Shown: positions 5,799 through 28,876 of the stretch, in pieces | Position numbering within the stretch: the first letter of the stretch is position 1 | Layout: each line of letters begins with the position of its first letter | Source of the DNA: Streptomyces sp. NBC_01716 | GTDB taxonomy: Bacteria; Actinomycetota; Actinomycetes; Streptomycetales; Streptomycetaceae | Direction: 5' to 3' | DNA length: 64,000 bases | Assembly (NCBI RefSeq): GCF_036248275.1 | Contig: NZ_CP109181.1 | Coordinates: forward strand, 1,860,001 to 1,924,000 | Program-made: the position numbers and the translations under genes | Notes under the pieces: model-generated | Database searches by the model: none | Seen by the model: only the letters and a program-made list of their open reading frames with translations | Told to the model about the DNA's origin: nothing

Positions 5799-8700
5799 TG
5801 CTCCTCCTCAAGAAGTCGCACAGCGTCACTGTCGGACAGCTGATCCAATTCGGCCAACAATTGCCCTATGTCCTCGGAATCCGCCTGCAGTTGGCGGACA
5901 TGGGCCGCGAGGACCGCGAGGCCTGGGCAAGCCAGTACGTCTTGTACGGCGATTCCGACACCGAGGTCGGCATTGAGGCGGGTGGTCACCCGGATGGCAT
6001 GCAGGGAATGCCCACCGAGATCGAAGAAATTGTCCGTGGTGGAGACGCGTTCGGTTCCCAGGGTTTCGGACCAGATCCGGGCGATCGCCTTCTCGACATC
6101 GTCGGCCGGCGGTACGTACTCGTCCGGCCGGGTCCCGATGTCCGGCTCTGGCAGCCCGCTTCGGTTGATCTTCCCGTTGGGGAGTAGGGGCAGTGTGTCC
6201 AGGACCACCACCTGTACGGGCACCATGTGTTCGGGCAGCCGTTCGGCCAGGAAGGCCCGCAGTTCGCCCCCGCTTCCAGGTTCCAGGCCCGGCCCCTCGG
6301 CGTAACCCACCAGACGCAGTGCACCACCCGTCCCGGGCGAAGCCACCACCACGGCCGCCTCGACCTCCGGATGCGAGTGCAACACCACCTCGATCTCGCC
6401 CGGTTCCACCCGGAAACCCCTGATCTTGACCTGCTGATCGACACGCCCCACGAACTCCAGCGTCCCGTCCGGCAGCCACCGCGCCAGATCACCCGTCCGG
6501 TACAACCGCGCACCCGGAACCCCGGAGAAACAGTCCGGCACGAACTTCTCCGCCGTCAGCCCCGGACGCGCCCAATAGCCCACCGCCACACCAGGACCAC
6601 CCAGCCACAGCTCACCCGGCACACCCACCGGCGCCAGCCACCCGAACCGGTCCACCACCCACGCCTGCGTATTCGCGATCGGCGGACCAATACGACCCGG
6701 TGTGACCGATCCCGCCACCAGCGGCATACACGTCGAGGTCGTGGTGACCTCGGTGGGACCGTAACAATTGTAGAAACGCGCCCCGCCGGCCCCGATAGCA
6801 CGCTCCACCATCACCGGATTGAGCGCCTCACCACCCACATGCACCCGCTCCAAGGTGGCAAAAGCGTCAGGGACCGCCGATACCGTCGCGTTGAACAGTG
6901 CCGACACGGCTCCAAGGACGGTCACGCCCTCCGAGCGGATCAGATCGCGCAGGCTCTCCGGAGCCGTCACCACTTCCGGTGGAATGATCACCACCCGGCC
7001 ACCGTTCAGCAGCGGTCCCCACACCTCGAACGTCAGAGGATCGAACGACGCCGAAGCAAGCTGCGCCATCACTGACGACTCGGACAGCGGAAGATAATCG
7101 GCCTCACATACCAGGCGCACCACCCCCGCGTGCGGCACCACCGCGCCTTTCGGCCGGCCCGTCGAACCCGACGTATACATCAGACACGCCGGCCTGAGAC
7201 CAGAACCACCGCCAACACCCCCACCGACACCGCCGGATGTGAGAGGGACAGGCCGCACCTGACTGATGTCGATGGTGGTCCGGCCGTCCAGCGGCAGACG
7301 GTCGAACAGATACTCATGCCCCACCACCACCCGCGCCCCGGAATCCTCCAGCATGAACGCCAGCCGCTCCCGCGGATACTCCGGATCCAGCGCCACATAC
7401 GCCGCCCCCGCCCGCAACACACCCAACATCCCCACCACAAGATCCGCCGAACGCTCCACACACAACCCCACCACCCCACCACGCCCCACACCCACAGCCC
7501 GCAACGCCGCAGCCACCCCATCAGCCCGCGCCACCAACTCCCCATACGACACAGACACACCACGATCCCGCACCGCCACCGCACCCGGCCGCTCCAACGC
7601 CCGCGCCACCACCCCCTCATCCACCGAATCCCACACCAGATCCGCGGCCGTCGAATTCCACGAGGAAAACGCCCGCCGCTCCTCATCGGAAAGGACATCA
7701 ATGGTGTCCACCCGACGATAAGGATCCTCAGCCAGGGCCCGCAGCAACCGCAGATAGCAGTCCCGGTAGCCACGCACCTGCTCGCCGGTGAACTCGGCCG
7801 TGTGGTAATCGATGACGTGAACGAGCCCGTCGGCCCCTGGTTCACGCATGAACCCGCACGCGAAAGGCCAGTTGGTCGGCTCGGACCGCGCGGTCATGTA
7901 GGAGCCGTCCGCCGCGCTCACGATCCCGACCTCGCCCGCCTCCAGCGCCTCGGCCAGTACATGGAAGTGGTTGTAGATGAAGTGCGTCTCGTACAGCTGG
8001 GCTCCGCCGGCCAGCGCCCTGATCTCGGTGTGCGGGAACCGTCGGTGCGGAAGGATCTCCGTGTCCCGGGCGAAAACCGCGCGGATGACATCCGCCATCG
8101 TGCCTTCCACCGGGACAGAGAAAGGAACCGAATTCAGGAAAAGACCCCGCGTGTCGGTCCCTCCCTCACCCTCCAACCGGCCATTGACCAAGAGCCCGGT
8201 AGTCGGACTACGGTGCCCGGTCAACTTGGACATCACCGCCAGATGAGCGCCAAGCAGCACAGACTTCAACGGCAGACCAAGCCGACGGGTGACGTCCACC
8301 AGCCCTTCGTACACAGCAGGATCCAGCCGAGTCTCAAGCGAGCCGAAGCCACTCCCCTCCTCCGGCGAGACCCGTTCCCCGTCTCCGACATCGCCGACCG
8401 GAACCGGGGCGCCTCCGCGCTCCGCCGGCGGCAACCGGGGAAGCCGGAGCGCCTCCCAGTCGCATATCGCTTCCTCCCAGAACGCCCGTGAAGCAGCGCT
8501 ACGGGCATCCGCCCGCTCCAACGCCACGAACTCCCGGAACCGGGAAACCGGAGCGGACTCCCGCGCGGCCTCCGGATCCTCCAGCAGCAGCGCATAGCGA
8601 CCGATAATCTCACCGATCGTGGAATTCAGGCTCCAGCCGTCCAGAATCGCGTGATGCTCGACAAGCGTCCACTGGAACTCCCCGTCATCCACTACATGAA

Positions 8701-11700
8701 TGAAGAACCTCAGCAGGCCGGGAACATTCACATCGAAGGGTATTCCGCGCTCCCTTCTCACGCACTCGGCGACCAACGCCGACCGTTCCGCCTCCGCCAG
8801 CTCACGGACATCCTCAACCACGACCGAAAGCTCAGCCATCTCATGGACAACCTGGAGCAAATCGTCGTAACCACTCAGGTGGAAAGAGGTACGCAAGATT
8901 TCATGACGAAGGACCACATCGTCCACAGCACGACGGAACAGGGACTCGTCGAAACGGGCCCGCATCCCAAAACTGTCCACATTGAGATAAGGGCTGATCC
9001 GGGAATCGGCCTCCATCTCGTAGATCATTCCCATCTGAAGCGCGGTCATCGGATAGGCGTCGACCGCGTCCGCGGGCATCCTTTCCCGGTCCCCGGTGGA
9101 GACCATCGAGAACGGTTTCAACTCCTGGGCTCGGGACTCGTGCGAGGTGCACAGCGGCGCCAGTCGCTCTACCGTCCTGTGCTGGAAGAGACTCTGAAGG
9201 TCAAAGGTCAGCCCGCGACTACGTGCGGCCGCCAGCACCTGAACACTTCGGATCGAGTCACCACCCAGATCGAAGAAGTTTTCACGCACCCCCACGCGAT
9301 TCACACCGAGCACCTCGCACCACACATCGGCAAGGATCTTCTCCTGCTCCGACGACGGCGCCAGATACTCCTCACGCGTTTCCGCGTGTGCGAACTCCGC
9401 GGAAGGCAGCCGAGCCAGATCGGCTTTGCCGTTGGCGTTGAGCGGAATCTCGTCGATCAGGATGATCAGCGCCGGAACCATGTAGGACGGGAGCCGCGCG
9501 GCCAGATGGTCGCGCAGGTCATTGACTGATGTCTCAGCTCCCGCAGCGGGAACGCAGTAGGCCACGAGCCGAGGAGTGTCCTCGTCGCGGGTCACGGTCA
9601 CCACGCTGGAATCGACCTGCGGATGAGCACCAAGGACGGCTTCCACCTCGCCCGTCTCCACCCGGAACCCTCGTATCTTGACCTGCTGATCGGCGCGGCC
9701 CACGTACTCGAGTTCGCCGCTGGGCAGCCAGCGCGCCAGGTCTCCGGAGGCATAGGTGACTCCGGCCCGGGAATTCTCAGGATCGATGGGAAGAAAGCGC
9801 TCAGCGGTCAGCTCCGGCCGGTTCAGGTAGCCGGCCGCCACCCCGGCGCCGGAGATGTGCATCTCCCCGGCGACACCGATCGGCTGTTCCCGCCCGTCAG
9901 GACCGAGCACACGGATGCTGTATCCGGGCAGCGGGACACCGATAGGGCTGACGCTGTCGTCCAACGCTTCGGGGGTGAGCGTCTTGACAGTGGCATGCAC
10001 CGTCACCTCGGTGATACCGAACATGTTGATCAGCTCAGGAGCACCAACCTGGTGCCGCTCCCACCAACGGCGGACCGCCGAGAGATCGACAGCCTCGCCC
10101 CCGAAAATTACCTTGCGCAGAGCCAGCGGTGCGGGTATTTGGGCGTCCGCCTCTTCGAACCTGCCGAAGGCGGTTGGTGTCACATTGAGGACGGTGACGC
10201 CGGCCTCCGAAACAAGCCGATGAAATCCGGCGGGATCCCTGGCCAATTCCGGAGGAACCACGACGAGGCACCCTCCGTTCGCGAGCGCGCCCCAGGTCTC
10301 CCACACGGAAAAGTCGAAGGACGCCGAGTGAAACAGTGACCAGACATCTTCGGGGCCGAAGTCGAAACACCTGCGGCCGATGGCCATCAGTGAGCCGAGA
10401 TTCCGATGTCGTACCGCGACGCCCTTCGGCCTCCCGGTGGAACCCGATGTGTAGATCAGGTACGCGAGATCGTCACCGCGCTCAAGGTTCCGGCCGATCG
10501 CATTCGCCGTGTCGGGTGTGAGGGCGACGGGTCGGGTTTGGCTGATGTCGATGGTGGTCCGGCCGTCCAGCGGCAGACGGTCGAACAGATACTCATGCCC
10601 CACCACCACCCGCGCCCCGGAATCCTCCAGCATGAACGCCAGCCGCTCCCGCGGATACTCCGGATCCAGCGCCACATACGCCGCCCCCGCCCGCAACACA
10701 CCCAACATCCCCACCACAAGATCCGCCGAACGCTCCACACACAACCCCACCACCCCACCACGCCCCACACCCACAGCCCGCAACGCCGCAGCCACCCCAT
10801 CAGCCCGCGCCACCAACTCCCCATACGACACAGACACACCACGATCCCGCACCGCCACCGCACCCGGCCGCTCCAACGCCCGCGCCACCACCCCCTCATC
10901 CACCGAATCCCACACCAAATCACCACCACCACCCCGCGACCACGACCGCAGCAACTCCACCTCAGCCGCCGGCATCCCCCTCAGCTCCGACAACCGCACC
11001 CGCGGATCCGCCGTCACCTCACCAAGCACCGCAAGCCACTGATCCACAAACCGCCGCACCGTAGACGCATTGAACAAATCAGACGCAAACTCAACCTCCC
11101 CCCACATACCATCCGCACCAGCATCAAAGACCAGCATCCCCAGATCAAACTTCGCCGTCCCCGTATGCACCGAACCAACCTCCCCCTCAGCACCACCACC
11201 CCACTCCCACCGGCGCCGCTCCACCGGATTCACACTGAACGTCACCTGCACCAACGGCGACCACGACGACTCACGCTCCGGCACCAACGCATCCACCAAC
11301 GACGAAAACGGCACCTCCTCATGCCCCTGCGCCGCCACCGCACTCCCCCGCACCCGCCGCACCAACTCCACAAACGACGGATCACCACCCAGATCCACCC
11401 TCACCGGCAACATATTCGCGAAAAACCCCACCACCCGATCCAGAGCAGCGGCACCCGACCGCCCCGCACCCGGCACCCCAACCACCACATCCTCCTGCCG
11501 CGACCAACGACCCACCACCACATCAAAAGCCGCCATCAGCACATGAAAAACCGTCGAACGGCACTCCCGCGCCACACCACGAACCCCGTCCACCAAACCA
11601 CCAGGAACATCAAAAACAACCATGTCCCCCACATACGACTGCACCGCCGGCCGCACCCGATCACCCGGCAGACTCAACACACCCGGCGCACCCTCCAAAT

Positions 11701-12349
11701 ACCCACGCCACCACCCCACACCCTCATCCAGCACACCCCCCGACAACCGCTCCCGCTCCCACACCGCAAAATCACCGAACGACAAAGAAACCTCCGGAAG
11801 CACCACCTCCCGCCCCTCAACCCCCGCCGCATAAAACTCCCGCAACTCCTCCTGCAAAACCCCCAACGACCACCCATCACACACCGCATGATGAAACACC
11901 AACCACAGAAGCCCCTCACCCACACCACCAAACTCCACAAACCCACCCCGCACCAACGGCGGCACACTCAAATCAAAAGACCCACACACCCCCTCACGCA
12001 CCACATCCCACGCCTCCCCCTCACCCCCCACAGAAACAACCGACCACGACACCTCAACCCCCACACCCGCCACCACAGAAACCGGACGCCCACCCACCGT
12101 CCGAACCCCCGAACGCAACGCCTCATGACGATCCACCAACCCCTGAACCGCCCCACCCAAAACCCCCACATCACACCCACGCACACGCACCACAAACGGC
12201 GCGTTATACAACGCACCCCCACCCACCAACTCATCAAGAAACCACAACCGCTCCTGCCCGAACGACACCACACCAGCCCCCACACCCCCACCAGGCACCG
12301 GACCAACCGACGGCACGAACGACCCAACAGAAGCCTCATACGCCTTCAT
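5795..12349 (-). CDS. Bimodular NRPS, C-A(Thr)-T-C(modAA-like)-A-T
   Basis: 2184 residues from the ATG at 12349 (MKAYEAS), preceded by GGGGAGAG. Module 1: C (~20-445, HHAVCDGWS near 155); A ([11 protein letters not shown] near 635), whose GrsA-aligned pocket reads DFWNIGMVHK, the classical threonine code; T ([11 protein letters not shown], Ser near 1030). Module 2: C' (~1075-1510, [10 protein letters not shown] near 1235; first motif [10 protein letters not shown]), a divergent condensation type resembling dehydrating modAA domains; A (YTSGSTG near 1728; pocket about D-P-F-A-H-G-C-T-T-K, substrate unrecognised); T ([11 protein letters not shown], Ser near 2112). Inference: Thr is loaded and may be dehydrated to dehydrobutyrine by C'. 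Bases 10542-12349 are almost identical to the neighbouring gene at 13605-15412. The next gene overlaps its stop by four bases. Confidence 0.95.
7251..7732 (-). repeat. 0.48-kb inverted repeat of 27029-27510 (end of C' domain plus A-domain core)
   Basis: This segment of the second module matches the reverse complement of 27029-27510 in the opposite arm with no length difference and only a few substitutions. It encodes the end of the C' domain ([20 protein letters not shown]) and the A1-A2 core up to [10 protein letters not shown]. The A-core part also recurs in 10542-10915 and 13605-13980, giving four near-identical copies in the cluster. Convergent arms with inverted identity can recombine and invert the segment between them. 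Confidence 0.88.
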
Positions 12350-12396
12350 AACTCTCCCCACTCCACTTCCCAATCAACAAACAAAACCATCCACCA
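10542..12396 (-). repeat. 1.85-kb direct repeat, copy 1 (C domain plus A-domain N-terminal core)
   Basis: This copy matches 13605-15459 at a constant offset of 3063 bases. I saw only two differences, at 10552 and 10565, both near its left edge. It covers a 47-base leader ending at 12396, the ribosome binding site, the whole first condensation domain and the A-domain N-terminus up to the [10 protein letters not shown] stretch. Beyond 10542 the two genes diverge into different A-domain pockets. The coding strand is strongly G/T-rich across the repeat. It reads as a recent tandem duplication by unequal crossover or gene conversion, although an assembly error in a long repeat cannot be excluded. 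Confidence 0.93.
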
Positions 12397-12433
12397 GAAA
12401 GGGCAACAGGACGGCTCAATCGCCATCCGTTTC
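12397..12433 (-). other. Remnant of a deleted carrier-domain linker
   Basis: Between the stop of the C-A gene and the duplicated leader lies a short stretch that is open in a different frame. Read on from about 12500 in that frame it gives PEPDIGTGPDEDVAPAHGIE, matching the A-to-T linker [20 protein letters not shown] of the neighbouring gene. It then jumps directly to the duplicated leader (reading [16 protein letters not shown] and a stop overlapping the next ATG). The ~75-residue carrier domain that should follow the linker is absent. Confidence 0.7.
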
Positions 12434-15412
12434 TCAATGCCGTGGGCCGGCGCCACGTCCTCGTCCGGCCCGGTCCCGATGTCCGGCTCGGGGCAGCGCT
12501 TGTCGGTTGATCTTCCCGTTGGGGAGCAGGGGCAGGGTGTCCAGGACCACCACTTGTACCGGCACCATGTGTTCGGGCAGCCGCTCGGCCAGGAAGGCCC
12601 GCAGTTCGCCCCCGCTTCCAGGTTCCAGGCCCGGCCCTTCGGCGTAACCCACCAATCGCAGTGCACCACCCGTCCCGGGCGAAGCCACCACCACGGCCGC
12701 CTCGACCTCCGGATGCGAGTGCAACACCACCTCGATCTCGCCCGGTTCCACCCGGAAACCCCTGATCTTGACCTGCTGATCGACACGCCCCACGAACTCC
12801 AGCGTCCCGTCCGGCAGCCACCGCGCCAGATCACCCGTCCGGTACAACCGCGCACCCGGAACCCCGGAGAAACAGTCCGGCACGAACTTCTCCGCCGTCA
12901 GCCCCGGACGCGCCCAATAGCCCACCGCCACACCAGGACCACCCAGCCACAGCTCACCCGGCACACCCACCGGCGCCAACCACCCGAACCGGTCCACCAC
13001 CCACGCCTGCGTATTCGCGATCGGCGGACCAATACGATACGGAGTAACCGATCCCGCCACCAGCGGCATACACGTCGAGAACGTGGTGACCTCGGTGGGA
13101 CCGTAACAATTATGGAAGCGGGCCCCGCCGGCCTGCATGGCACGCTCCGCCAGTACCGGGTTGAGCGCCTCACCACCCACGTACATCTGCTCCAGCGAGG
13201 CGAAGACATCAGGAACCAACGGCACCATCGCGTGGAACAAGGCAGTCACCACAAAGGCCACGGTCACGCCCTCCGAACGGAGGAGATCACGCAGGCTCTC
13301 CGGAGCCGTCACCACTTCCGGTGGAATGATCACCACCCGGCCACCGTTCAGCAGCGCACCCCACACCTCGAACGTCAGAGGATCGAACGACGCCGCGGCA
13401 AACTGGCCTGTCACTGACGACTCGGACAGCGACACATAGTCCGTCCCGCAGACCAGGCGCACCACCCCCGCGTGCGACAGCACCGCGCCCTTCGGCCGGC
13501 CCGTCGAACCCGACGTATACATCAGACACGCCGGCCTGAGACCAGAACCACCGCCAACACCCCCACCAGCACTGCCGGATGTGAGAGGGACAGGCCGCAC
13601 CTGACTGATGTCGACGGTGGTCCGGCCATCCAGCGGCAGACGGTCGAACAGATACTCATGCCCCACCACCACCCGCGCCCCGGAATCCTCCAGCATGAAC
13701 GCCAGCCGCTCCCGCGGATACTCCGGATCCAGCGCCACATACGCCGCCCCCGCCCGCAACACACCCAACATCCCCACCACAAGATCCGCCGAACGCTCCA
13801 CACACAACCCCACCACCCCACCACGCCCCACACCCACAGCCCGCAACGCCGCAGCCACCCCATCAGCCCGCGCCACCAACTCCCCATACGACACAGACAC
13901 ACCACGATCCCGCACCGCCACCGCACCCGGCCGCTCCAACGCCCGCGCCACCACCCCCTCATCCACCGAATCCCACACCAAATCACCACCACCACCCCGC
14001 GACCACGACCGCAGCAACTCCACCTCAGCCGCCGGCATCCCCCTCAGCTCCGACAACCGCACCCGCGGATCCGCCGTCACCTCACCAAGCACCGCAAGCC
14101 ACTGATCCACAAACCGCCGCACCGTAGACGCATTGAACAAATCAGACGCAAACTCAACCTCCCCCCACATACCATCCGCACCAGCATCAAAGACCAGCAT
14201 CCCCAGATCAAACTTCGCCGTCCCCGTATGCACCGAACCAACCTCCCCCTCAGCACCACCACCCCACTCCCACCGGCGCCGCTCCACCGGATTCACACTG
14301 AACGTCACCTGCACCAACGGCGACCACGACGACTCACGCTCCGGCACCAACGCATCCACCAACGACGAAAACGGCACCTCCTCATGCCCCTGCGCCGCCA
14401 CCGCACTCCCCCGCACCCGCCGCACCAACTCCACAAACGACGGATCACCACCCAGATCCACCCTCACCGGCAACATATTCGCGAAAAACCCCACCACCCG
14501 ATCCAGAGCAGCGGCACCCGACCGCCCCGCACCCGGCACCCCAACCACCACATCCTCCTGCCGCGACCAACGACCCACCACCACATCAAAAGCCGCCATC
14601 AGCACATGAAAAACCGTCGAACGGCACTCCCGCGCCACACCACGAACCCCGTCCACCAAACCACCAGGAACATCAAAAACAACCATGTCCCCCACATACG
14701 ACTGCACCGCCGGCCGCACCCGATCACCCGGCAGACTCAACACACCCGGCGCACCCTCCAAATACCCACGCCACCACCCCACACCCTCATCCAGCACACC
14801 CCCCGACAACCGCTCCCGCTCCCACACCGCAAAATCACCGAACGACAAAGAAACCTCCGGAAGCACCACCTCCCGCCCCTCAACCCCCGCCGCATAAAAC
14901 TCCCGCAACTCCTCCTGCAAAACCCCCAACGACCACCCATCACACACCGCATGATGAAACACCAACCACAGAAGCCCCTCACCCACACCACCAAACTCCA
15001 CAAACCCACCCCGCACCAACGGCGGCACACTCAAATCAAAAGACCCACACACCCCCTCACGCACCACATCCCACGCCTCCCCCTCACCCCCCACAGAAAC
15101 AACCGACCACGACACCTCAACCCCCACACCCGCCACCACAGAAACCGGACGCCCACCCACCGTCCGAACCCCCGAACGCAACGCCTCATGACGATCCACC
15201 AACCCCTGAACCGCCCCACCCAAAACCCCCACATCACACCCACGCACACGCACCACAAACGGCGCGTTATACAACGCACCCCCACCCACCAACTCATCAA
15301 GAAACCACAACCGCTCCTGCCCGAACGACACCACACCAGCCCCCACACCCCCACCAGGCACCGGACCAACCGACGGCACGAACGACCCAACAGAAGCCTC
15401 ATACGCCTTCAT
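12434..15412 (-). CDS. NRPS C-A protein lacking its carrier domain (truncated, frameshifted)
   Basis: 992 residues from the ATG at 15412 (same GGGGAGAG site and MKAYEAS start as the next gene). C domain ~20-445 with HHAVCDGWS near 155; A domain with [11 protein letters not shown] near 633, NCYGPTE, YRTGD and LPNGKINR near 966; pocket about D-P-F-V-Y-G-C-T-F-K, unrecognised. The reading frame ends at once after the A10 lysine motif with an Arg/Gly-rich tail. Against the second module of the neighbouring gene there is one extra base near 12500 (GGGGCAGCGCTTGT against TGGCAGCCCGCTT). Even in the corrected frame only the linker remains and no T domain follows. It is therefore either a decaying duplicate or an A domain loading a T domain in trans; the A-less T in the plus arm is an obvious candidate. 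All A-domain core motifs look intact. Confidence 0.85.
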   Translation of the reverse strand: MKAYEASVGSFVPSVGPVPGGGVGAGVVSFGQERLWFLDELVGGGALYNAPFVVRVRGCDVGVLGGAVQGLVDRHEALRSGVRTVGGRPVSVVAGVGVEVSWSVVSVGGEGEAWDVVREGVCGSFDLSVPPLVRGGFVEFGGVGEGLLWLVFHHAVCDGWSLGVLQEELREFYAAGVEGREVVLPEVSLSFGDFAVWERERLSGGVLDEGVGWWRGYLEGAPGVLSLPGDRVRPAVQSYVGDMVVFDVPGGLVDGVRGVARECRSTVFHVLMAAFDVVVGRWSRQEDVVVGVPGAGRSGAAALDRVVGFFANMLPVRVDLGGDPSFVELVRRVRGSAVAAQGHEEVPFSSLVDALVPERESSWSPLVQVTFSVNPVERRRWEWGGGAEGEVGSVHTGTAKFDLGMLVFDAGADGMWGEVEFASDLFNASTVRRFVDQWLAVLGEVTADPRVRLSELRGMPAAEVELLRSWSRGGGGDLVWDSVDEGVVARALERPGAVAVRDRGVSVSYGELVARADGVAAALRAVGVGRGGVVGLCVERSADLVVGMLGVLRAGAAYVALDPEYPRERLAFMLEDSGARVVVGHEYLFDRLPLDGRTTVDISQVRPVPLTSGSAGGGVGGGSGLRPACLMYTSGSTGRPKGAVLSHAGVVRLVCGTDYVSLSESSVTGQFAAASFDPLTFEVWGALLNGGRVVIIPPEVVTAPESLRDLLRSEGVTVAFVVTALFHAMVPLVPDVFASLEQMYVGGEALNPVLAERAMQAGGARFHNCYGPTEVTTFSTCMPLVAGSVTPYRIGPPIANTQAWVVDRFGWLAPVGVPGELWLGGPGVAVGYWARPGLTAEKFVPDCFSGVPGARLYRTGDLARWLPDGTLEFVGRVDQQVKIRGFRVEPGEIEVVLHSHPEVEAAVVVASPGTGGALRLVGYAEGPGLEPGSGGELRAFLAERLPEHMVPVQVVVLDTLPLLPNGKINRQALPRAGHRDRAGRGRGAGPRH

Positions 15413-15459
15413 AACTCTCCCCACTCCACTTCCCAATCAACAAACAAAACCATCCACCA
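13605..15459 (-). repeat. 1.85-kb direct repeat, copy 2
   Basis: Partner of 10542-12396 (offset 3063). It includes the leader upstream of the 15412 start, the full C domain and the A-domain N-terminal core of the C-A gene. Identity stops abruptly at 15459, where sequence leading to the MFS gene begins. The duplicated 47-base leader still contains the tail reading frame [16 protein letters not shown] ending in an ATGA overlap. This suggests that the unit originally followed another NRPS gene whose stop overlapped the start codon. Confidence 0.93.
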
Positions 15460-15484
15460 AGACGACGACAGGACAGCCCTGTGC

Positions 15485-19245: not shown

Positions 19246-19317
19246 GAACCGTGTGATCACACGCCGCCGGCTGCCGCCGCGCCTACGGAGAGTGCGATGC
19301 CGCCAGGAGGAGCCTTC

Positions 19318-21216
19318 ATGACAGGAAACGCGGGTGATCTTCCGCAATCGGCCGGCCCGGCCCGTGTCGCGGCGGCCGGGGGCTTGGTGATGAGCCGTGC
19401 GCAGGCACTGCCGCGCTTCGAGCTCGGTCCGGACGACGGCACCGGCACGAAGCCGTTGGTACTGCCCTGGCGGGCCACGCTGGCGGACGCGGTGCGGGGC
19501 ATCAGCGGGCGGCAGTCCGCCGAACACCTTGAGACGTGGGTGTCCGGCGGCATCGGCATGACCCTTGAGACTTCCGCCCGAGGCATGTCGATCAACATGC
19601 CGGACGGCCCGCCGTATGTGGACGGCGAACTCCTGCGGGGACGCGTCGTCGCCATCCTGGATCAGTGGGATCGTCTCGCGAATGAGCCCATGGGGAGCGT
19701 GGCGCCTTGGGGAGTTGGCGACAAGACCGTCATCGACGCCGCCAGCGGTACCGCCGTGCCACCTCCCAGCCGGCTCGTTCCCCAGACGATCGCCGACGCG
19801 GGCAAGGGTGCCGCCGGCGACATCTGCCTGATCGACGACGCCGGCAGTGTGACGTGGGCGGAACTGGCCGCTCTTGCCGCCGGCTACGCGGCGGGGCTGT
19901 GGCAGGCCGGACTGGGACCCGGAGACGTAGCGGCGGTGGCTCTGCCACGAAACCGTCACCTGATCGCCGCGTACCTCGGTGTCTGGCACGCCGGTGCCGC
20001 CTTCGCCCCGGTCGACGCGACCCATCCGGCAGCGCGTGTCGCACGTCAGCTGGAAGCCGTCGGTGCGCGGGCCGTCGTCGGAGACCCGGGAAACACACTT
20101 CCCGGACCGCTGCCCCGGATCCGGCCCGTTCGGGGCAGCTCCGCTCCGGAGCACCGGCACAGCCCCGGCGAACTCGCCTATGTGATGTGTACCTCCGGGT
20201 CCACCGGCGAACCGAAGGCCGTGGGGGTGTCGCACGGCGCGCTCGCCGGCTGTGTCGAAGCGTTCCGCGATGTTCTGGGCGACGGCCGAAGGACCGCCTA
20301 TCTCACCGGATCCACGTTTGACATATCCCTGCTGGAGTTCACGTATCCGCTGACCACCGACGGTGTCCTGCTCGTGGTGGGAGACGCCCGGCGTCGTGAC
20401 CCCGCCGACACCACGCGCTGGCTGCTGGATCAGCGGGCCGATCTGATCCAGGCGACCCCGAGTGCGTGGAGTCTGATGACGGACTCGCTACGCGAGGACA
20501 TGTCTCACACCGTTCTGCTCTGCGGGGGCGAGGCCCTGGCTCCTGATCTCGCAGCCCGCCTCACCGCCACCGGCGCTCAGGTGTGGAACTGTTACGGACC
20601 GACCGAAGCCACCATCTGGGCCACCGTGCAGCCACTCACTTCCGGGACGACGGGCCCCGTGTCCATCGGCCGGCCGCTTCCGGGGACCACCGCGCATGTC
20701 TTGTCCGGCCCCGGTCTGGTGCCGGTCGCCGTCGGCGAGCCGGGCGAACTCTATATCGGAGGGCGGCAGCTCGCCGTCGGCTACCTCGGACGTGACGACC
20801 TCACCGCGGAAGCTTTCGTCACCCATCCCGTCCATGGCCGCGTCTACCGGACAGGAGACATCTGTTCGTGGCGGGATGACGGCACTCTTCGTTTCCACGG
20901 CCGTGAAGACGGCCAGGTCAAGGTGCGGGGCCATCGGGTGGAACTGGTGGAGATCGACGCCGCCGTGGAGTCTCACCCCAAGGTGCGCAGGGCGGCGACC
21001 CTCCTCTCCGGAGAGGGCGAGACGGCGTCGCTGCTGTGCTGTCTCGAACCGGCTGACGGGGCCGATCCCGATGCCACCGAGCTCCGTACGTTCATCGCCG
21101 GTCTGCTTCCCGGGGCTTGGGTGCCGGCGCGGTTCGCGATCGTCGACGAACTGCCCCGGACATCCAGTGGCAAGGTCGACCGCCGTGCGCTGACGGCGCT
21201 TGCCAGCAACTCCTGA
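19318..21216 (+). CDS. Free-standing adenylation domain, glycine-like code
   Basis: 632 residues. The ATG at 19318 is preferred to the one seven codons earlier because CAGGAGGAGCC precedes it. Residues ~1-140 are not a standard A domain: they resemble the last part of a condensation domain (MSINMPDGPPYVDGELLRG, then VVAILDQWDRLANEP) without HHxxxDG. The A domain follows: MCTSGSTGEPKA, NCYGPTE, YRTGD, and SSGKVDRR at the end. The GrsA-aligned pocket reads DILQLGCIWK, one change from the glycine code DILQLGLIWK. There is no carrier domain, so the aminoacyl group must go to a T domain in trans, most plausibly the A-less first T of the NRPS gene at 23033. It lies 72 bases after the SARP gene and 35 bases before the carbamoyltransferase. 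Confidence 0.9.
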   Translation: MTGNAGDLPQSAGPARVAAAGGLVMSRAQALPRFELGPDDGTGTKPLVLPWRATLADAVRGISGRQSAEHLETWVSGGIGMTLETSARGMSINMPDGPPYVDGELLRGRVVAILDQWDRLANEPMGSVAPWGVGDKTVIDAASGTAVPPPSRLVPQTIADAGKGAAGDICLIDDAGSVTWAELAALAAGYAAGLWQAGLGPGDVAAVALPRNRHLIAAYLGVWHAGAAFAPVDATHPAARVARQLEAVGARAVVGDPGNTLPGPLPRIRPVRGSSAPEHRHSPGELAYVMCTSGSTGEPKAVGVSHGALAGCVEAFRDVLGDGRRTAYLTGSTFDISLLEFTYPLTTDGVLLVVGDARRRDPADTTRWLLDQRADLIQATPSAWSLMTDSLREDMSHTVLLCGGEALAPDLAARLTATGAQVWNCYGPTEATIWATVQPLTSGTTGPVSIGRPLPGTTAHVLSGPGLVPVAVGEPGELYIGGRQLAVGYLGRDDLTAEAFVTHPVHGRVYRTGDICSWRDDGTLRFHGREDGQVKVRGHRVELVEIDAAVESHPKVRRAATLLSGEGETASLLCCLEPADGADPDATELRTFIAGLLPGAWVPARFAIVDELPRTSSGKVDRRALTALASNS

Positions 21217-21251
21217 CGTACCTGTTCCGCAACGAAGTCGGAGGATTCCCG

Positions 21252-23036
21252 GTGAAGATACTCGGCCTGAGTGGGTTCCATACGAGTGCGGCCTTCAAAC
21301 GGGCCCAGCTGCCGGACCTGGACGAGCGCGAGCTTCGCATTCTCCAGGGCCAGGACTCGGCCGCCGCTCTGCTGGTGGACGGGGAGGTACGCGCCGCCGC
21401 CGCGGAGGAACGCTTCTCCGGGGAGAAGGCCACCGGACTCTTCCCGGCGGCCGCGATACGCGACGCCCTCGACCGCAGCGGTGTGAAAGCGCATGAACTG
21501 GACGTCGTCGCGCACGGCTTCGCCTACCAACGGCCCTCCGGGGCCGGCGAGGGCAGCGATTACCGCACGCGCCAGTTCGATGAGGTCTTCGACCCGGAGC
21601 TTCAGGCCCAGTGGCTGGGCGAGCACTTTCCCGGCGTCGACTGGCGAGAGCGCCTGCGCCCCGTGCCGCATCACCTTGCCCATGCCGCCAGCGCCTATTA
21701 CCCCTCCGGCGCGTCCGAGTCACTGATCCTCGTGGCGGACGGCATGGGCGAGAGGGAGAGCCTGACGGTGGCCGTGGGGCAGGGCCGCGACATCGAGATC
21801 CTTCACACCGTTCCCGTTCTGCATTCACTCGGAACCTTCTACGGAGCGATCACCCTCTATCTCGGCTTCGACATGATGATGGACGAGTACAAGGTGATGG
21901 GCCTGGCCTCCTTCGGCGACCGGGGCCGCTTCGCCAAAGACTTCGCCGATCTGGTGGTGCGGCATCCGGGTGGGCGGTTCGCGATTCCGCTGCTCGCGCG
22001 TGACCGAGGACTGGTCGAGCAGGAGAGCCTGCGCGGAGCGCTGCGTGTGCTGGCCGAGCGCTTCGGTACGCCGCGCAAGCCGGGCGAGCCGCTGGAACAG
22101 CGGCACATGGACGTCGCGGCCGCCGCGCAGGCGGAGCTGGAGGCCTGTCTCCTGCACGTTCTCTCCCACTACAAGGAGCAGACCGGACTGCGTACCCTCA
22201 GCTTTGCCGGAGGAGTGGCGCTCAACTGCACGGCCAACGGCGTGATCGCGCGCAGTGGCCTCTTCGACGAGGTGCACATCCCGCCGGGTGCCGGCGACGA
22301 CGGCACCGCACTCGGTGCCGCCATGTATGTGGCGTCGACCTCACCCCAGTCACCGCCCGTGGCCCACGCTCCCATGCCCTACTGGGGAAGCTCATTCAGC
22401 AGGTCCGAGATCGAGGGGGCGATCGACGAGCGGCGGGACTGCGAGGCCACGTCCTTTGCCGACTTCGATGAACTCGCCGCCGTGGTCGCGGACGCCCTGG
22501 CCGCCGGGGAGGTGGTCGCGTGGTTCCAGGGCGGTATGGAGTTCGGCCCGCGAGCGCTCGGGCATCGCAGCATTCTCGCGGACCCGCGGGAAAGCGGTAT
22601 GCGGGACCGCATCAACGCGCTGATCAAGCGGCGTGAGGACTTCCGGCCTTTCGCGCCGATTGTTCTGCACCGCTCCGCGGCGGAGCTCTTCGAGATCGAG
22701 CCGGGCACCGAAGACCGCTACGCGCACATGTTGTTCGCCACCGCCACTCGTCCTGGGCACCGACACCATCTCGGTGCGGTCACTCACATCGACGGGAGCG
22801 CGCGAGTTCAGGTCCTTCGGCCGGAACACAATCCACGACTGGCCGCGGTTCTCGAGGAGTTCGCGGAGAGGGCGGGCATACCGGCGCTGCTGAACACCTC
22901 CTTCAATCTCCGCGGTCAGCCGATCGTGCGTGACCCGGCGACGGCCCTGGACACCTTTGTCCGGGGCGGTCTGGACCGGCTGGTCATCGGCGACTTCTCC
23001 GTTCAGCGACGGGGCACCGAGGGAGTGAAGAAGTGA
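21252..23036 (+). CDS. Carbamoyltransferase, NodU/CmcH (TobZ) family
   Basis: 594 residues from the GTG at 21252 ([14 protein letters not shown]), chosen for the GGAGGA site; the open frame upstream overlaps the A-domain gene. The family transfers a carbamoyl group from carbamoyl phosphate to a hydroxyl (or amine) through a carbamoyl-adenylate formed in a Kae1-like domain. Visible: [20 protein letters not shown] start, [14 protein letters not shown] near residue 139, FAGGVALN, and the C-terminal domain signature [19 protein letters not shown] near 428 with [14 protein letters not shown] near 546. The stop overlaps the next NRPS start (GTGA), so the two are translationally coupled. The substrate is not visible. 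A hydroxyl of a residue in the peptide, such as Thr or Ser, is an inference. Confidence 0.93.
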
Positions 23037-26000
23037 CGAGAGACCTGCCTCAGGGACCTTCCAGCGGCAGCCCTGCCCACGAGTTGCCCGGGACGGCCGA
23101 TCCACGACTTCTTTCCTACGAGCGGGCCTCGCTGACCCATGTCATGCCGACTGCCCGACGGGACATCACCGACGCGGCGACTCGGCACGGGGTCGGCTCG
23201 GCACGGGTCGTCGAAGCCGCCCTGCACGCGATGCTCGCCGCGGACGGCCACGAAGGAACTGTCCTCTTCCTGCGCGATTCCGGGCATCCAGCCCCGGTGC
23301 CGGAGCTGATGCCGGTGACACCGGTCACGCCCCTGGCCGAGGTGACGAGACTCGGCGCCGTGCGGCCGGCATCCAGTGATTCCCGCACCCCGGCCGTGCC
23401 GGGGCTCGCGTTGCTGTTCACCGAAGCCGACGCGGTCCCACCCATGCCGCGTGAGGCCGACTCCGCCGACGTTGTGGTTCACGTGGACATGGGTGGCGAA
23501 GCCGTAAACGCGACGTGGACCTATGACGCGGACCGCCACACACAGGCGGACATCGACGCCCACGCACGCACTCTGGAGGTGCTGCTGGTCGCCTTGGGCA
23601 CGGAGAATCCGGGTACGGTCGAGGAAGCCCGCCATTCCCGGTCGCCGGGGCTGACCCTGCTCGCGCCCCTTCGTCATTCCGATCAGCTGGACTCCGATCA
23701 GCTGGAAACTTCCACGGAGAAGCGTCTCGCCGAAATCTGGTGCGACCTTCTCCTGTTCGACACCATTGGCCCCGGCGACGACTTTTTCGCTCTCGGCGGT
23801 GACTCCTTCACAGGAACCCGCCTGATGGGGATTGTCGCCAAGACGTGGGGCGTCTACATCGGCATCCAGAGTCTCCAGGATCATCCCACTCTGGCCGGTC
23901 TCGCGTCCGTGATCAGTCGCGCCGTCGACGAGGACTCCGCCGGGGCCTCGTCCCTGTCGCGCGTGCCGTCCCGCGAGGGCACCGGGCCGGCGGTCGTGTC
24001 GCTCGGTCAGGAGCGTCTGTGGTTCCTCGACCATCTGGTGGGGGGAGGCGCGCTGTACAACGTCCCGTTCGTGGTGCGTGTACGTGGCGGATGCGACGTG
24101 GGCTCACTGCACGGGGCGATCCAAGAGCTGGTGGGCCGTCATGAGGCCCTGCGTTCGGGAATTCGTACAGTGGACGGGCGTCCCGTCCCCGTGGTGTGCG
24201 ACGTGGGGACCGGCGTGCCGTGGTCGGTCGTTTCCGCGACTGACGAGAGCCAGGCGTGGAATGTGGTGCGTGCGGGGGTGCGTGAACCTTTCGACCTGAG
24301 CGCGCCGCCGCTGGTGCGGGCGGGATTCGTGCGGTTCGGTGAGGGCACGCGGGGAGACGGGCTGCTCTGGCTCGTCCTCCATCATGTGGTCTGCGACGGC
24401 TGGTCGTTGCGGCTACTTCAGCAGGAGCTCCAGGAACTCTACGAGGCGGGTTCCCCGGCTCGTGAGGCGGATCCAGCGGAGTTCACTCCGTCTTACGCTG
24501 ATTTCGCGGTGTGGGAGCGTGACCGGCTTTCCGGTGAGGTGTTGGAGGAAGGCATCGGGTGGTGGCGCGAATACCTGGAGGGTGCGCCCGGAGCGTTGAG
24601 TCTCTCGCGGGATCGTCCTGGACCCGCGGTGCGGTCCTTCGCGGGTGACATGATCGCCTTCGACGTCCCGGGAACTCTGGTCGAGGGGATTCGCGCTCTG
24701 GCACGGGAGTGCCGATCCACGGTTTTTCATGTGCTGATGACGGCGTTCAACGTGGTGGTGAGCCGTTGGTCGGAACAGGATGACGTGGTCGTCGGAGTGC
24801 TGGGTGGCGGGCGGTCTGGCGCTGTCGGCCTGGACCGTACGGTGGGGTTCTTCGCTCGTACGCTGCCGGTGAGGGTGGATCTGGCGGGTGATCCGTCGTT
24901 CGCCGGACTGGTGCGGCGAGTCCGGGCGAGTTCTTCCGCGGCCCAGGGGCACGAGCATGTGCCGTTCACGTCGCTGGTGAACGCGCTGGTGCCGGAGCGG
25001 GAGAGAGCCGGATCTCCCCTCGTGCAGGTCACCTTCAGTGTGAATCAGGTGGAGCGTCGTCGTTGGCGATGGAGTGACGGAGCTGAGGCGGAGGTCGGCT
25101 CGGTGCACACCGGCACGGCCAAGTTCGATCTAGGGATGCTGATCTTCGACGCCGGTACCGACGGAATGTGGGGCGAGGTGGAATTCGCCTCGCAACTGTT
25201 CGACGTCGCAACGGTTCAGCGATTTGTTGACGAGTTGCTCGCGTTGCTCGAAAAGGCCGCGGTCGACCCGCAGTTGAGGCTCTCGGACCTGGGGGGCCGG
25301 TCCTCCGCCGAGACGGCACCGGTACGCGGCCACCGCGGCACCGAGATGTTGTCCGCCAAGTACGCCGCGTACCGGGAGAAAGACGGTGGTCACGTACCAC
25401 CGTCCAGTGAGCAGGAGCGAATTCTCGCCGGTGCCTGGGAGGAGGTGCTGGGCGTCGAGCGGGTCGACCCGCGGGACAATTTCTTTGATCTGGGAGGAGA
25501 CTCGATCCGCGGTGTGCACATGCTTGCCACGGTGCGTCGGCGCGGGCTGACGTTCGAGCTTCAGGATCTGTTTCAGAACCGGACCGTCGAGGCTCTGGCC
25601 CGGTGCTGCACACCGGTCGCGGCTCGCGACAAGGATCTGGATCCGTTCTCCATGATTTCTCCGTCGGATCGGGAGCGGATGCCCGCGACCGCGGTCGACG
25701 CCTATCCGCTGGTGTCGCTTCAGACAGGGATGATCTATGAGATGGAGGCGGACACCCAGCGCAATCTCTACCACAACGTGGACAGCTTCCGGGTACGTGG
25801 CCTCTTCTCGGAAGATCTCTTCCGTCAAGCCGTCGACGACGTGGTCAGTCGCCACGATGTTCTACGTACATCCCTGCACATGAACGGCTTCGACGATCTG
25901 CTCCAGATTGTTCACGAGAGCGCGAGCATCTCCCTGGCAGTGCGGGACGTCAGTTCCCTCCCGGAAGACGAGCGGGCGGAAGTCCTGGACGCCGCGGTTG

Positions 26001-28876
26001 GAGAACAGCGCGGGCTTCCTTTCGACGCGACCGTTCCAGGCCTGATGCGCTTTGTTGTCCATCTGCTGGACGACCGCGAATTCCAATGGACGATAGCAGA
26101 GCATCACGCGATACTGGACGGCTGGAGTCTGAATGCGACCGTCAACGAGATACTGAGCCGTTACGCTGCCCTTCTCAGTGCCCCTGACGCCCCATTGGCT
26201 CCGCCGCCGGCCTCCCAGTTCCGGGACTTTGTCGCACTTGAGCGGCGGGAGGTACTCGGGCATACCTCGGCCGCGTTCTGGGAGGAGGCTGTGCGGGACT
26301 GGGAACTGCCGCTGTTGCCTCGTGTGCCCCTTGCCGGGCGTGGGGTTGTGATGCCGCCGGCCAACAGCCCTGGATCGGCAGACCGATCACCGTCGGCCCG
26401 CAACGACGATTTCTACGGGTCCAGGCAGAGCAAGCTGGATCACGCGCTGCGCGATCGGCTGACGGATGTTTCGCTGCAATTCGGTCTACCGCTGAAGAGC
26501 GTACTGCTGAGTGTGCATCTGATTGTCATGTCGACGCTGACAGGGCATCCGATGCCGGTAACCGGTGTGGCTTCGAACGGGCGACCGGAGACCGAAGGGG
26601 GCGTTGATTCCCGTGGCATGTATCTGAATTCTTTGCCCTTTTCGGTGCCGATTGAAGGCACTTTCTCCGACATCGTTCATGCGGTCTTCAAGCGCGAAAC
26701 GGAGATTATTCCGTACCGGCGCTACCCGAGCGCGCAGATTCAGGCACTGGCCGGCGGAGGCCGGCTACACGAGGCGCATTTCGCATACAATCACTTCCAC
26801 GTGCTGGGAGATGTCCTGGGTGATGGCCGGGTGAGCATCGTAAGCACCGGAGGTGACTCATACCTGAGCGCCCGGGTAGGACCGACGGACTTCCCGTTCC
26901 TCTGCGCCTTCCTGCGTGATCCTCTGTCGGACGACATCCACCATGTCATTGACTTTCACACCGCCGAGTTCACCGACGATCAGGTTCAGTCCTTCATCGA
27001 CTGCTATCTGCGGGTGATGCATTCGGTTGCTGAGGATCCTTATCGTCGGGTGGACACCATTGATGTCCTTTCCGATGAGGAGCGGCGGGCGTTTTCCTCG
27101 TGGAATTCGACGGCCGCGGATCTGGTGTGGGATTCGGTGGATGAGGGGGTGGTGGCGCGGGCGTTGGAGCGGCCGGGTGCGGTGGCGGTGCGGGATCGTG
27201 GTGTGTCTGTGTCGTATGGGGAGTTGGTGGCGCGGGCTGATGGGGTGGCTGCGGCGTTGCGGGCTGTGGGTGTGGGGCGTGGTGGGGTGGTGGGGTTGTG
27301 TGTGGAGCGTTCGGCGGATCTTGTGGTGGGGATGCTGGGTGTGTTGCGGGCGGGGGCGGCGTATGTGGCGCTGGATCCGGAGTATCCGCGGGAGCGGCTG
27401 GCGTTCATGCTGGAGGATTCCGGGGCGCGGGTGGTGGTGGGGCATGAGTATCTGTTCGACCGTCTCCCGCTGGACGGCCGGACCACCATCGACATCAGCC
27501 AGGTGCGGCCCATGGGGATCCCGGAGTCGGCCAAGTCGGTCGCTTCGGCCGGATCTCCGGTGTGTCTGACGTATACATCGGGATCCACGGGACAGCCGAA
27601 GGGCGCCTTGCTGCCACACGCGGGCGTGGTGCGGCTGGTCTGCGGGACGGACTTCGTGTCGTTCTCGGAGTCTTCGGTGATCGCACAGATCTCCTCGTCG
27701 TCGTTCGATCCTCTGACGCTGGAGGTGTGGGGTGCGCTGCTGAACGGGGGACGGCTGGTCATGGTTCCGCCGGACGTGGTGGTGGACCCGGTCGCGCTGC
27801 CGGAGCTGTTGCGCTCAGAAGGCGTGACAACGCTGGTGATAGTCACGGCACTGTTCAACGCGACAGTGGCGCAATTCGCGGATGCCTTCGCCTCGATGGA
27901 CCAGATCTACATCGGAGGTGAGTCGATGAATCCTGCCATGGTGCGGCGTGCCCTCGAAGCGGGGGACGCACAGATCTACAACGTCTACGGGCCAACTGAG
28001 GTGAGTTGCATCTCCACATCCGAACCCTTGGTGGAGGAGCCGGAGGGGACGGGTCGTATTGGTCCGCCGATCGCGAATACGCAGGCGTGGGTGGTGGACC
28101 GGTTCGGGTGGCTGGCGCCGGTGGGTGTGCCGGGTGAGCTGTGGCTGGGTGGTCCTGGTGTGGCGGTGGGCTATTGGGCGCGTCCGGGGCTGACGGCGGA
28201 GAAGTTCGTGCCGGACTGTTTCTCCGGGGTTCCGGGTGCGCGGTTGTACCGGACGGGTGATCTGGCGCGGTGGCTGCCGGACGGGACGCTGGAGTTCGTG
28301 GGGCGTGTCGATCAGCAGGTCAAGATCAGGGGTTTCCGGGTGGAACCGGGCGAGATCGAAGCGGTGCTGTGGTCGCATCCGGAGGTCGAGGCGGCCGTGG
28401 TGGTGCCCATGACGGGGCCGGACGGTTCGCAGCGTCTGGTGGGTTACGGCCAGGGGCCCGGCCTGCGCCCGGGGGACGCGCGAGAGTTGCGCGCGTTCCT
28501 GGCCGAGCGGCTGCCCGAGCACATGGTGCCCGCGCAGGTGGTGGTGCTGGACACGCTGCCGCTGCTGCCCAACGGGAAGATCAACCGGTTGGAACTGCCT
28601 CAACCGGAAGAACGTCAGGCGGAGCCGGGCGAGTTCGTATCGCCCGGAGGCGAGATCGAGGAAACCATCGCTCGGATCTGGTCCGAGGTGCTGGGCGTGG
28701 AACGGATCTCGGCCACCGACGACTTCTTTGATCTCGGTGGGCATTCCCTCCACGCCGTCCAGGTCATCACGCGCGTCAATACCCGCCTCGGAGTCGGCAT
28801 CGACCTGAACGATCTTTTCGAGGCCGAGTCTCTGAGCGCGCTGGCCGATCGCTGCGAACTTCTCCGGGCCCGGTAG
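23033..28876 (+). CDS. NRPS with partial C-T, an A-less C-T module, then C'-A-T
   Basis: 1947 residues from the GTG at 23033. Order: ~1-215, a degenerate region like the C-terminal half of a C domain, without HHxxxDG; T1 ([11 protein letters not shown], Ser near 258); C (HHVVCDGWS near 449); T2 ([11 protein letters not shown], Ser near 823) reached directly, with no A domain between; C' (~870-1300, [10 protein letters not shown] and [10 protein letters not shown] near 1023); A ([11 protein letters not shown] near 1514; pocket about D-P-L-I-Y-G-V-C-I-K, unrecognised); T3 ([11 protein letters not shown], Ser near 1903). T1 is probably charged by the free-standing glycine-type A domain. T2 and the following C' closely match the Thr module and C' of the minus arm, as if the Thr A domain had been cleanly deleted. 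No thioesterase is present, so the chain passes to the minus-arm proteins. Confidence 0.94.
27029..27510 (+). repeat. 0.48-kb inverted repeat, plus-arm copy
   Basis: Counterpart of 7251-7732 in the plus-arm NRPS gene. Identity begins at GCTGAGGATCC and fades just after the [10 protein letters not shown] codons. A second conserved block, about 28050-28360, matches 6405-6700 and 12760-13045 and encodes the A5-A8 region ([17 protein letters not shown] onwards). The pocket-forming stretch between the two blocks is different in each gene. This is the pattern expected when only the substrate-binding subdomain has been exchanged. Confidence 0.85.

What the first reader, a model, noticed from the sequence alone, without database searches (positions are those of the whole stretch)
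7251..28360. Mosaic A domains: identical core blocks with swapped substrate pockets, in both arms
The A1-A2 core is near-identical at 7261-7640, 10542-10915, 13605-13980 and (inverted) 27125-27500. A second near-identical block, A5-A8, is shared by three of these genes (about 6405-6700, 12760-13045 and 28050-28360). Between the blocks the pocket regions differ completely and give four different codes. This is direct evidence for subdomain exchange as the route by which this cluster changes substrates.
Basis: seen in the sequence. Interest (0 to 1): 0.8.

Follow-up and report, generated by a model that had tools for sequence, protein, structure and literature searches.

The report
Copied enzyme blocks around kept pockets
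In a Streptomyces gene cluster for a peptide-making enzyme line, near-identical DNA blocks with a lopsided base make-up flank different substrate pockets in four modules; in the one module where it could be tested by family trees the blocks, not the pocket, are the part that was replaced, likely by copying from module to module, which would keep the shared enzyme frame uniform while substrate choices stay apart.

Summary
The blocks are real and sharply bounded: synonymous divergence is 0-0.03 inside them and 0.37-1.9 in the pockets. The g2-A1 pocket groups with first-module pockets of Nonomuraea, Acrocarpospora and Micromonospora (100/100; alternative rejected, p 2e-12), but its core groups with its neighbours' cores (100/99; first-module placement rejected, p 0.001). 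g2-A2 and g4 pockets are about as diverged as their C and T domains. So blocks were overwritten and pockets kept; g3 stays open. [quoted passage not shown] no ketosynthase of the modular type lies near. Nine of 38 other multi-A loci, chosen with bias, show near-identical skewed cores around different pockets; 0 of 28 and 0 of 59 loci chosen otherwise do. Best reading: GRINS-type gene conversion homogenises the substrate-neutral frame of A domains in a pure NRPS, while pockets are likely kept apart by selection.

The parts
5795..12373 (-). g2, NRPS gene C-A-T-C-A-T (modules with A1 and A2)
   Evidence: Pfam scan
12434..15436 (-). g3, NRPS gene C-A without T domain; hybrid of g2 module 1 (5' part) and g2 module 2 (3' part)
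   Evidence: Pfam; self-BLASTN; remnant of T domain
23033..28876 (+). g4, NRPS gene T-C-T-C-A-T on the other arm; T1-C2-A-T2 paralogous to g2 at 75%
   Evidence: Pfam; self-BLASTN
1707..5798 (-). g1, NRPS gene C-A-T-TE; C, core and A5-A8 skewed but not near-identical to the others
10561..12420 (-). GRINS-type block 1 of g2: upstream stretch, C domain and A1-A2 core of module 1
   Evidence: GRINS rule; 99% to 13573-15477
13591..15480 (-). GRINS-type block of g3: upstream stretch, C domain and A1-A2 core
7261..7740 (-). GRINS-type block of g2-A2: end of C domain, linker and A1-A2 core
27031..27510 (+). GRINS-type block of g4: end of C domain, linker and A1-A2 core
6391..6750 (-). GRINS-type second block (A5-A8) of g2-A2
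   Evidence: exact 310 bp with g4
12721..13080 (-). GRINS-type second block (A5-A8) of g3
   Evidence: exact 322 bp with g2-A2
28051..28350 (+). GRINS-type second block (A5-A8) of g4
9991..10453 (-). A3-A5 pocket region of g2-A1 (code DFWNIGMVH), kept; limits read off the alignment
6733..7177 (-). A3-A5 pocket region of g2-A2 (code DPFGHGCTT)
13075..13519 (-). A3-A5 pocket region of g3 (code DPFFYGCTF); origin open
27572..28016 (+). A3-A5 pocket region of g4 (code DPLVYGVCI)

Best explanation
The near-identical blocks meet the sequence rule for GRINS (strand-skewed repeats) inside a pure NRPS gene cluster, and they were likely copied between modules by repeated gene conversion that overwrote the substrate-neutral parts of the A domains (A1-A2 core, A5-A8 block, in one pair the whole C domain) while the pockets stayed in place. 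Shown here: block identity with sharp ends; near-zero synonymous divergence in blocks against 0.37-1.9 in pockets; opposite placement of core and pocket of g2-A1 in trees; the skew. Inferred: that the process is gene conversion and still goes on, that the skew helps it, and that selection removes conversions that would make a pocket the same as its neighbour's. g3 is a hybrid: upstream stretch, C domain and core as in g2 module 1, A3 to A10 as in g2 module 2 apart from its pocket; without a T domain it would be dead or act in trans.
For: dS 0-0.03 in core and 0-0.013 in the second block against 0.37-1.9 in pockets. Blocks of g2-A2 and g4 are embedded in a 75% background that runs from T1 to T2. 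Trees: g2-A1 pocket with first-module pockets of other genera 100/100, alternative p-AU 1.9e-12; g2-A1 core with the window's other cores 100/99, first-module placement p-AU 0.0012, also rejected with each outgroup A1 group apart in a reduced set. Sister strain NPDC058665: in g2-A2/g4 the tract has 2 concerted and 0 vertical sites of 51, the upstream part 0 and 211 of 552. S. camponoticapitis P0240: core 85-86% to all four window cores alike, pocket 68, 67, 58 and 36%. G/T fraction at third positions of cores 0.88-1.00 in g1-g4 against 0.39-0.46 in six other A domains of the genome. Over 544 intra-locus A pairs of all sets, all 37 with cores 95% or more alike have both cores at G/T 0.7 or more, 0 of 434 other pairs do (pairs not independent).
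Against: No sister-strain DNA could be had, so the concerted signal rests on two residues in draft assemblies that may merge repeats. The core tree is weakly resolved in its depth: outgroup A1 cores do not form a clade in the free tree, though a clade is not rejected (p 0.395), and one set of identical rows was left free in the main core test. For the second block the alternative placement of g2-A1 is not rejected (p 0.098). The g3 pocket is unexplained. Five of the seven GRINS segments are 300-480 bp, shorter than the about 1 kb of the published description. Skew and identity do not match perfectly (rank correlation 0.49 over 42 bins), and g1 is skewed without being near-identical. In samples not chosen by the core, 0 of 59 and 0 of 28 loci show the pattern.
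Confidence: 0.8

Rival explanations
1. Pocket swap: a fixed A-domain frame received foreign pockets between A2 and A5/A6, and that changed the substrates.
For: The block ends lie where swaps were mapped in wollamide synthetases (between A2 and A5/A6; PMC9205934, passages). The g3 pocket (dS 0.37 from g2-A2) sits between near-identical flanks. Four different codes.
Against: The g2-A1 pocket, A5-A8 and the core have opposite placements, and it is the core that leaves the first-module group. g2-A2 and g4 pockets are as diverged as the C and T domains around them. No donor for the g3 pocket in the genome, nor above 67% elsewhere within the length limit of the search. A 67-bp identical patch inside the diverged stretch of g3/g2-A2 needs a second event.
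Confidence: 0.1
2. Recent duplication followed by selection for new pockets, without recombination.
For: Code residues differ between otherwise alike domains.
Against: Synonymous sites diverge together with amino acids in the pockets (dS 0.37-1.9) and not in the blocks; C and T domains of g2 and g4 are far apart while the blocks between them are identical.
Confidence: 0.03
3. The blocks are alike because of constraint (protein function or codon use), not copying.
For: A core motifs are conserved in the family; the skewed codon choice lowers the number of codons used.
Against: 376 bp identical at every base, whereas homologous cores of other genera are 43-62% identical in protein and other genus genomes 70-76% in DNA over most of the core; g1, equally skewed, is not near-identical.
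Confidence: 0.03
4. Assembly artefact: repeats merged or duplicated by the assembler.
For: Such repeats break drafts: the NPDC058665 g2 protein P0008 ends inside the second core, and P0240 lies on a 2,990-bp contig.
Against: The window's genome is one contig of 8.67 Mb, copies differ by a few bases, and the stretches upstream of g2 and g3 differ. Reads were not seen.
Confidence: 0.03

Closest known systems
[quoted passage not shown] 2021: not held, recalled; described in PMC10394414, PMC9899208 and PMC11907408, passages seen)
   Same: Repeats within one cluster, identity over 90%, GC and TA skew over 0.25 on the coding strand, linked with gene conversion between modules.
   Different: Here in a pure NRPS, in C and A domains; five of seven segments are shorter than 500 bp; they flank the specificity region and leave it out, whereas in PKS they are credited with helping AT domains to diversify (PMC11907408 passage).
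A-domain subdomain swap by intragenomic recombination, wollamide/desotamide synthetases (Booth et al. 2022, PMC9205934, passages seen)
   Same: Two paralogous genes alike outside, different between A2 and A5/A6; shared nucleotide skew noted.
   Different: There the pocket was replaced from a known donor gene and tested biochemically; here the tree test shows the core was replaced and the pocket kept (g2-A1).
A-core exchange across bacterial NRPS (Baunach et al. 2021, PMC8097286, passages seen)
   Same: Breakpoints inside the A core; C-A linker and A-sub/T interface kept.
   Different: There the exchanged unit carries the specificity region; here it leaves it out.
Homogenised McyB1/McyC A domains of microcystin synthetases (PMC2174460, passages seen)
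   Same: Paralogous A domains in one strain made alike by recombination while C domains stay diverged.
   Different: There whole A domains, pocket included, are overwritten in some strains; no strand skew is mentioned in the passages seen.

Membership tests
GRINS | High identity (often over 90%) to another region of the same cluster | tested here: met
   Seven segments, mean identity 0.99-1.0; 376, 310, 569 bp exact runs. Rule from PMC10394414
GRINS | GC and TA skew over 25%, same sense on the coding strand | tested here: met
   Mean skews 0.35-0.58 and 0.42-0.58, sign follows gene strand
GRINS | Length about 1 kb (or at least 500 bp in the rule of PMC9899208) | tested here: inconclusive
   Strict rule: two segments of 1860 and 1890 bp, five of 300-480 bp; laxer rule (over 80%, skew over 0.15, at least 500 bp): six segments of 510-2250 bp
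GRINS | Lies in an assembly-line PKS or PKS-NRPS hybrid (the hosts surveyed so far; not part of the sequence rule) | tested here: not met
   No PF00109 match between 1,314,963 and 2,053,168 of the contig that holds the window at 1,860,001-1,924,000
GRINS | Takes part in gene conversion | tested here: met
   By sequence only: tree conflict, block ends, concerted residues; no experiment
A-core subdomain (pocket) swap | The pocket, not its flanks, has the foreign tree position | tested here: not met
   g2-A1: pocket in place, core displaced. g3: inconclusive
A-core subdomain (pocket) swap | Breakpoints between A2 and A5/A6 | tested here: met
A-core subdomain (pocket) swap | Substrate change shown by assay | not testable with these tools
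   Codes differ; substrates not assayed

The most novel reading that the evidence does not exclude
NRPS clusters of Streptomyces and relatives carry their own GRINS system: strand-skewed blocks at the A1-A2 core, C domain and A5-A8 act as a copying frame that keeps the chassis of the A domains in a cluster uniform, and so interchangeable, while pockets persist as islands; the same layout arose or persists separately in at least ten clusters.
Probability: 0.45. Interest if true: 0.75.

Novelty: new variant of a known kind. Interest (0 to 1): 0.55.

Why it matters
The picture of alike flanks around unlike pockets is often read as proof that pockets move. Here a tree test shows that in one module the flank was replaced instead, so lists of pocket swaps made from identity plots alone may need an outgroup check. 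If skewed blocks drive conversion in NRPS as proposed for PKS, they would mark natural cut points where A domains tolerate exchange, useful for engineering, and they can be found by composition alone. It also makes a testable question of why third codon positions in such blocks avoid C and A while G+C content stays high.

Tried and rejected
Duplication plus selection, constraint without copying, and assembly merging were weighed and set aside (see rivals). A sister-strain DNA comparison was not possible: g4-specific DNA matched only the window's own genome among 395 genomes at E 1e-60, and the genome-contig scan listed 80 of 96 distant loci, best segments at most 42% identical. A plasmid search gave 4 records with at most 3% of the query covered. 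A search for a donor of the g3 pocket found none. Two samples not chosen by the core sequence gave no case: 0 of 59 multi-A loci, 141 pairs and 0 of 28, 119 pairs. RDP and GARD were not run; a GENECONV-like permutation, dS windows and AU tests stand in. No structure was predicted. The product of the cluster was not identified. The original GRINS paper is not in the library, so what it says on NRPS was not seen.

Full report
What is there. The window is part of one 8.67-Mb contig (positions 1,860,001-1,924,000). The nearest named proteins are from Streptomyces. Four NRPS genes matter: g1 1707-5798(-) with C, A, T and TE domains, g2 5795-12373(-) C-A-T-C-A-T, g3 12434-15436(-) C-A, and on the other arm g4 23033-28876(+) with three T, two C and one A domain. 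Between the arms lie an MFS transporter, a BTAD regulator, a stand-alone A domain and a carbamoyltransferase. The nearest PF00109 ketosynthase matches are 0.13 Mb to the right and 0.54 Mb to the left, so this is a pure NRPS locus as far as modular PKS go; a KASIII-type gene lies in the left flank.

Check of the observation. A codon alignment of the four modules shows the steps. Core: 0 differences in 120 codons between g2-A1 and g2-A2, and dS 0.01-0.03 in pairs with g3 or g4. Second block (99 codons): 0 differences between g2-A2 and g4, one synonymous difference of either with g3. Pocket (A4-A5, 104 codons): dS 0.37 (g2-A2/g3), 0.94-0.98 (g4 with these), 1.4-1.9 (g2-A1 with the rest). The C domain of g2 module 2 against g4 has dS 1.6, and the T domain 0.76. 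Exact shared runs are 376 bp (g2-A1/g2-A2), 310 bp (g2-A2/g4), 352 and 322 bp (g2-A2/g3) and 569 bp (g2-A1/g3). A permutation of polymorphic sites reached the longest shared run in 0 of 2000 draws for g2-A1/g3, g2-A2/g3, g2-A2/g4 and g3/g4; g2-A1/g2-A2 gave p 0.004 (for a short run outside the core) and g2-A1/g4 0.66, because the shared core has almost no sites that vary in the four-sequence set. Pockets do not 'differ completely': 80% protein identity for g3/g2-A2, 61% for g4 with either. The codes are DFWNIGMVH, DPFGHGCTT, DPFFYGCTF and DPLVYGVCI (positions set by motif anchors that I recalled from GrsA).

Which part moved. Homologues with the same C-A-T-C-A-T layout were found in Acrocarpospora (P0020), Nonomuraea (P0028, P0040) and, in part, Micromonospora (P0199, P0210). 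Trees of 20 A domains, after leaving out three far ones (g1, P0132, P0123), were built per segment with IQ-TREE. Pocket: g2-A1 lies with the five outgroup first-module pockets (100/100), and joining it to the other window pockets is rejected (p-AU 1.9e-12). Core: g2-A1 lies with the other window cores (100/99), and joining it to the outgroup first-module cores is rejected (p-AU 0.0012; one set of identical rows was left free in that test). In a reduced set it is also rejected with the Acrocarpospora/Nonomuraea group and with the Micromonospora group apart (p 0.0026 or less), while the outgroup A1 cores alone are not rejected as a clade (p 0.395). Second block: g2-A1 stays with the A1 group (100/99), the alternative not rejected (p 0.098). 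So in g2-A1 the core was replaced and the pocket kept. For g2-A2 and g4, which are paralogues from T1 to T2 at 75% nucleotide identity, the pocket is about as old as the C and T domains and the blocks are the young parts. Which copy was the donor is not known.

g3. Its 5' 1.9 kb (upstream stretch, C domain, core) equals g2 module 1 at 99%, and its 3' 1.5 kb equals g2 module 2 at 94%. It stops after A10 with a short T-domain remnant, 105 of 119 bases alike to g2 with one gap that shifts the frame, and has no PP-binding domain. No g3 protein of NPDC058665 is among the 120 listed best hits, which suggests a young gene; yet its pocket is dS 0.37 from g2-A2. An identical patch of 67 bp inside the diverged stretch fits an old duplicate partly overwritten, but an import from an unseen relative is not excluded.

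Sister strains. Streptomyces sp. NPDC058665 has g4 (98%, P0001) and most of g2 (P0008, cut in the second core). Two residues at the start of the tract differ between the strains but agree among the copies within each strain. In g2-A2/g4 the tract has 2 concerted and 0 vertical sites of 51, the upstream part 0 concerted, 211 vertical and 25 other of 552. In g2-A1/g4 the stretch that starts in the linker has 1 concerted, 16 vertical and 3 other of 147. A protein of S. camponoticapitis (P0240) has a core 85-86% identical to all four window cores alike, but a pocket 68, 67, 58 and 36% identical to g2-A2, g3, g4 and g2-A1, and a second copy of its own C-domain end and core start inside itself. Both are drafts, so merged repeats are a caveat.

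Skew. In the tracts third codon positions are nearly all G or T: the G/T fraction of the core is 0.88-1.00 in the five A domains of g1-g4, against 0.39-0.46 in six other A domains of the genome (five at three other loci and the stand-alone A in the window). Four-fold sites of the g2 C domain and core are A0 C7 G260 T98 in sum, while the second C domain of g2 has A12 C79 G121 T51. The laxer rule of PMC9899208 (passages) returns six longer segments. The fit of skew and identity is not perfect: over g2-A2/g4 the rank correlation of identity and G/T fraction is 0.49 (42 bins). g1 is skewed in C, core and A5-A8 and less in the pocket but not near-identical, so skew is not only a by-product of recent copying.

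Elsewhere. Set A: 40 stretches that I picked from the capped lists for two core matches on one contig within 20 kb and three for a single one; 38 have two or more full A domains. In 9 of 38 loci (11 of 266 pairs) the cores are 95% identical or more and the pockets 85% or less, and all 11 pairs have different codes. Choice by a skewed DNA query favours skewed loci. Set B: 80 loci, found by protein: 0 of 59 multi-A loci, 141 pairs. Set C: 36 stretches from 11 genus genomes, picked from the capped list of condensation domains: 0 of 28 loci, 119 pairs; one pair has cores at 97% and pockets at 92%. Over all sets with this genome's own loci (544 pairs), 37 pairs have cores 95% or more alike; in all 37 both cores have a G/T fraction of 0.7 or more; 73 further pairs are as skewed without being so alike; none of 434 less skewed pairs is so alike (pairs are not independent). 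The cores of the ten loci are at most 74% identical to each other, so each cluster has its own. In 23 pairs the pocket itself is 95% or more identical, 20 of them with the same code, so copying can reach pockets; that it spares them between modules of different code is likely selection, an inference. Whether the nine other loci are free of PKS genes was not checked.

Literature. Searches (open-licence library) listed GRINS only in papers on PKS or PKS-NRPS hybrids and in a minireview (PMC11915812) that speaks of skews and gene conversion in PKS and NRPS in general; the original paper is not held. PMC9205934 notes shared nucleotide skew in the wolG NRPS genes and a swap between A2 and A5/A6; PMC8097286 finds A-core exchange common; PMC2174460 describes homogenised McyB1/McyC A domains; PMC3640908 reports gene conversion of specificity regions. 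Of all these I saw passages, not whole texts. So neither skew in NRPS nor A-domain recombination is new by itself; what I did not find in these searches is a GRINS-rule match in a pure NRPS with a tree test showing that a flank, not the pocket, was replaced.

Verdict. A new variant of a known kind: GRINS-type gene conversion in an NRPS that homogenises the frame of A domains around kept pockets. The mechanism (conversion, role of skew, selection on pockets) is inferred from sequence.

Noticed in passing
23996-25650: The first module of g4 has no A domain: its C domain is followed directly by a T domain, while the relatives P0137 and P0178 have an A domain after a homologous C domain.
   Followed up: partly
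19297-21216: Stand-alone A domain with code DILQLGCIW, which from memory resembles glycine codes; it might load the A-less module of g4 in trans.
   Followed up: no
12374-12560: T-domain remnant at the end of g3, frame-shifted and cut, just upstream of g2.
   Followed up: partly
1707-5798: g1 is strongly skewed in C domain, core and A5-A8 but not near-identical to the other genes: skew without recent copying.
   Followed up: partly
42270-45299: Protein with five Golvesin C-terminal domains and a GH16 domain, outside the NRPS part.
   Followed up: no
L143:9466-14947: Left flank of the cluster: KASIII-type synthase, HMGL-like aldolase, acetaldehyde-dehydrogenase-like protein, FAA hydrolase and methyltransferase genes, perhaps a precursor pathway.
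   Followed up: no
L173, L163, L170 (other genomes): The opposite pattern: A-domain pairs with pockets 99-100% identical and the same code while cores are only 81-83% identical.
   Followed up: no
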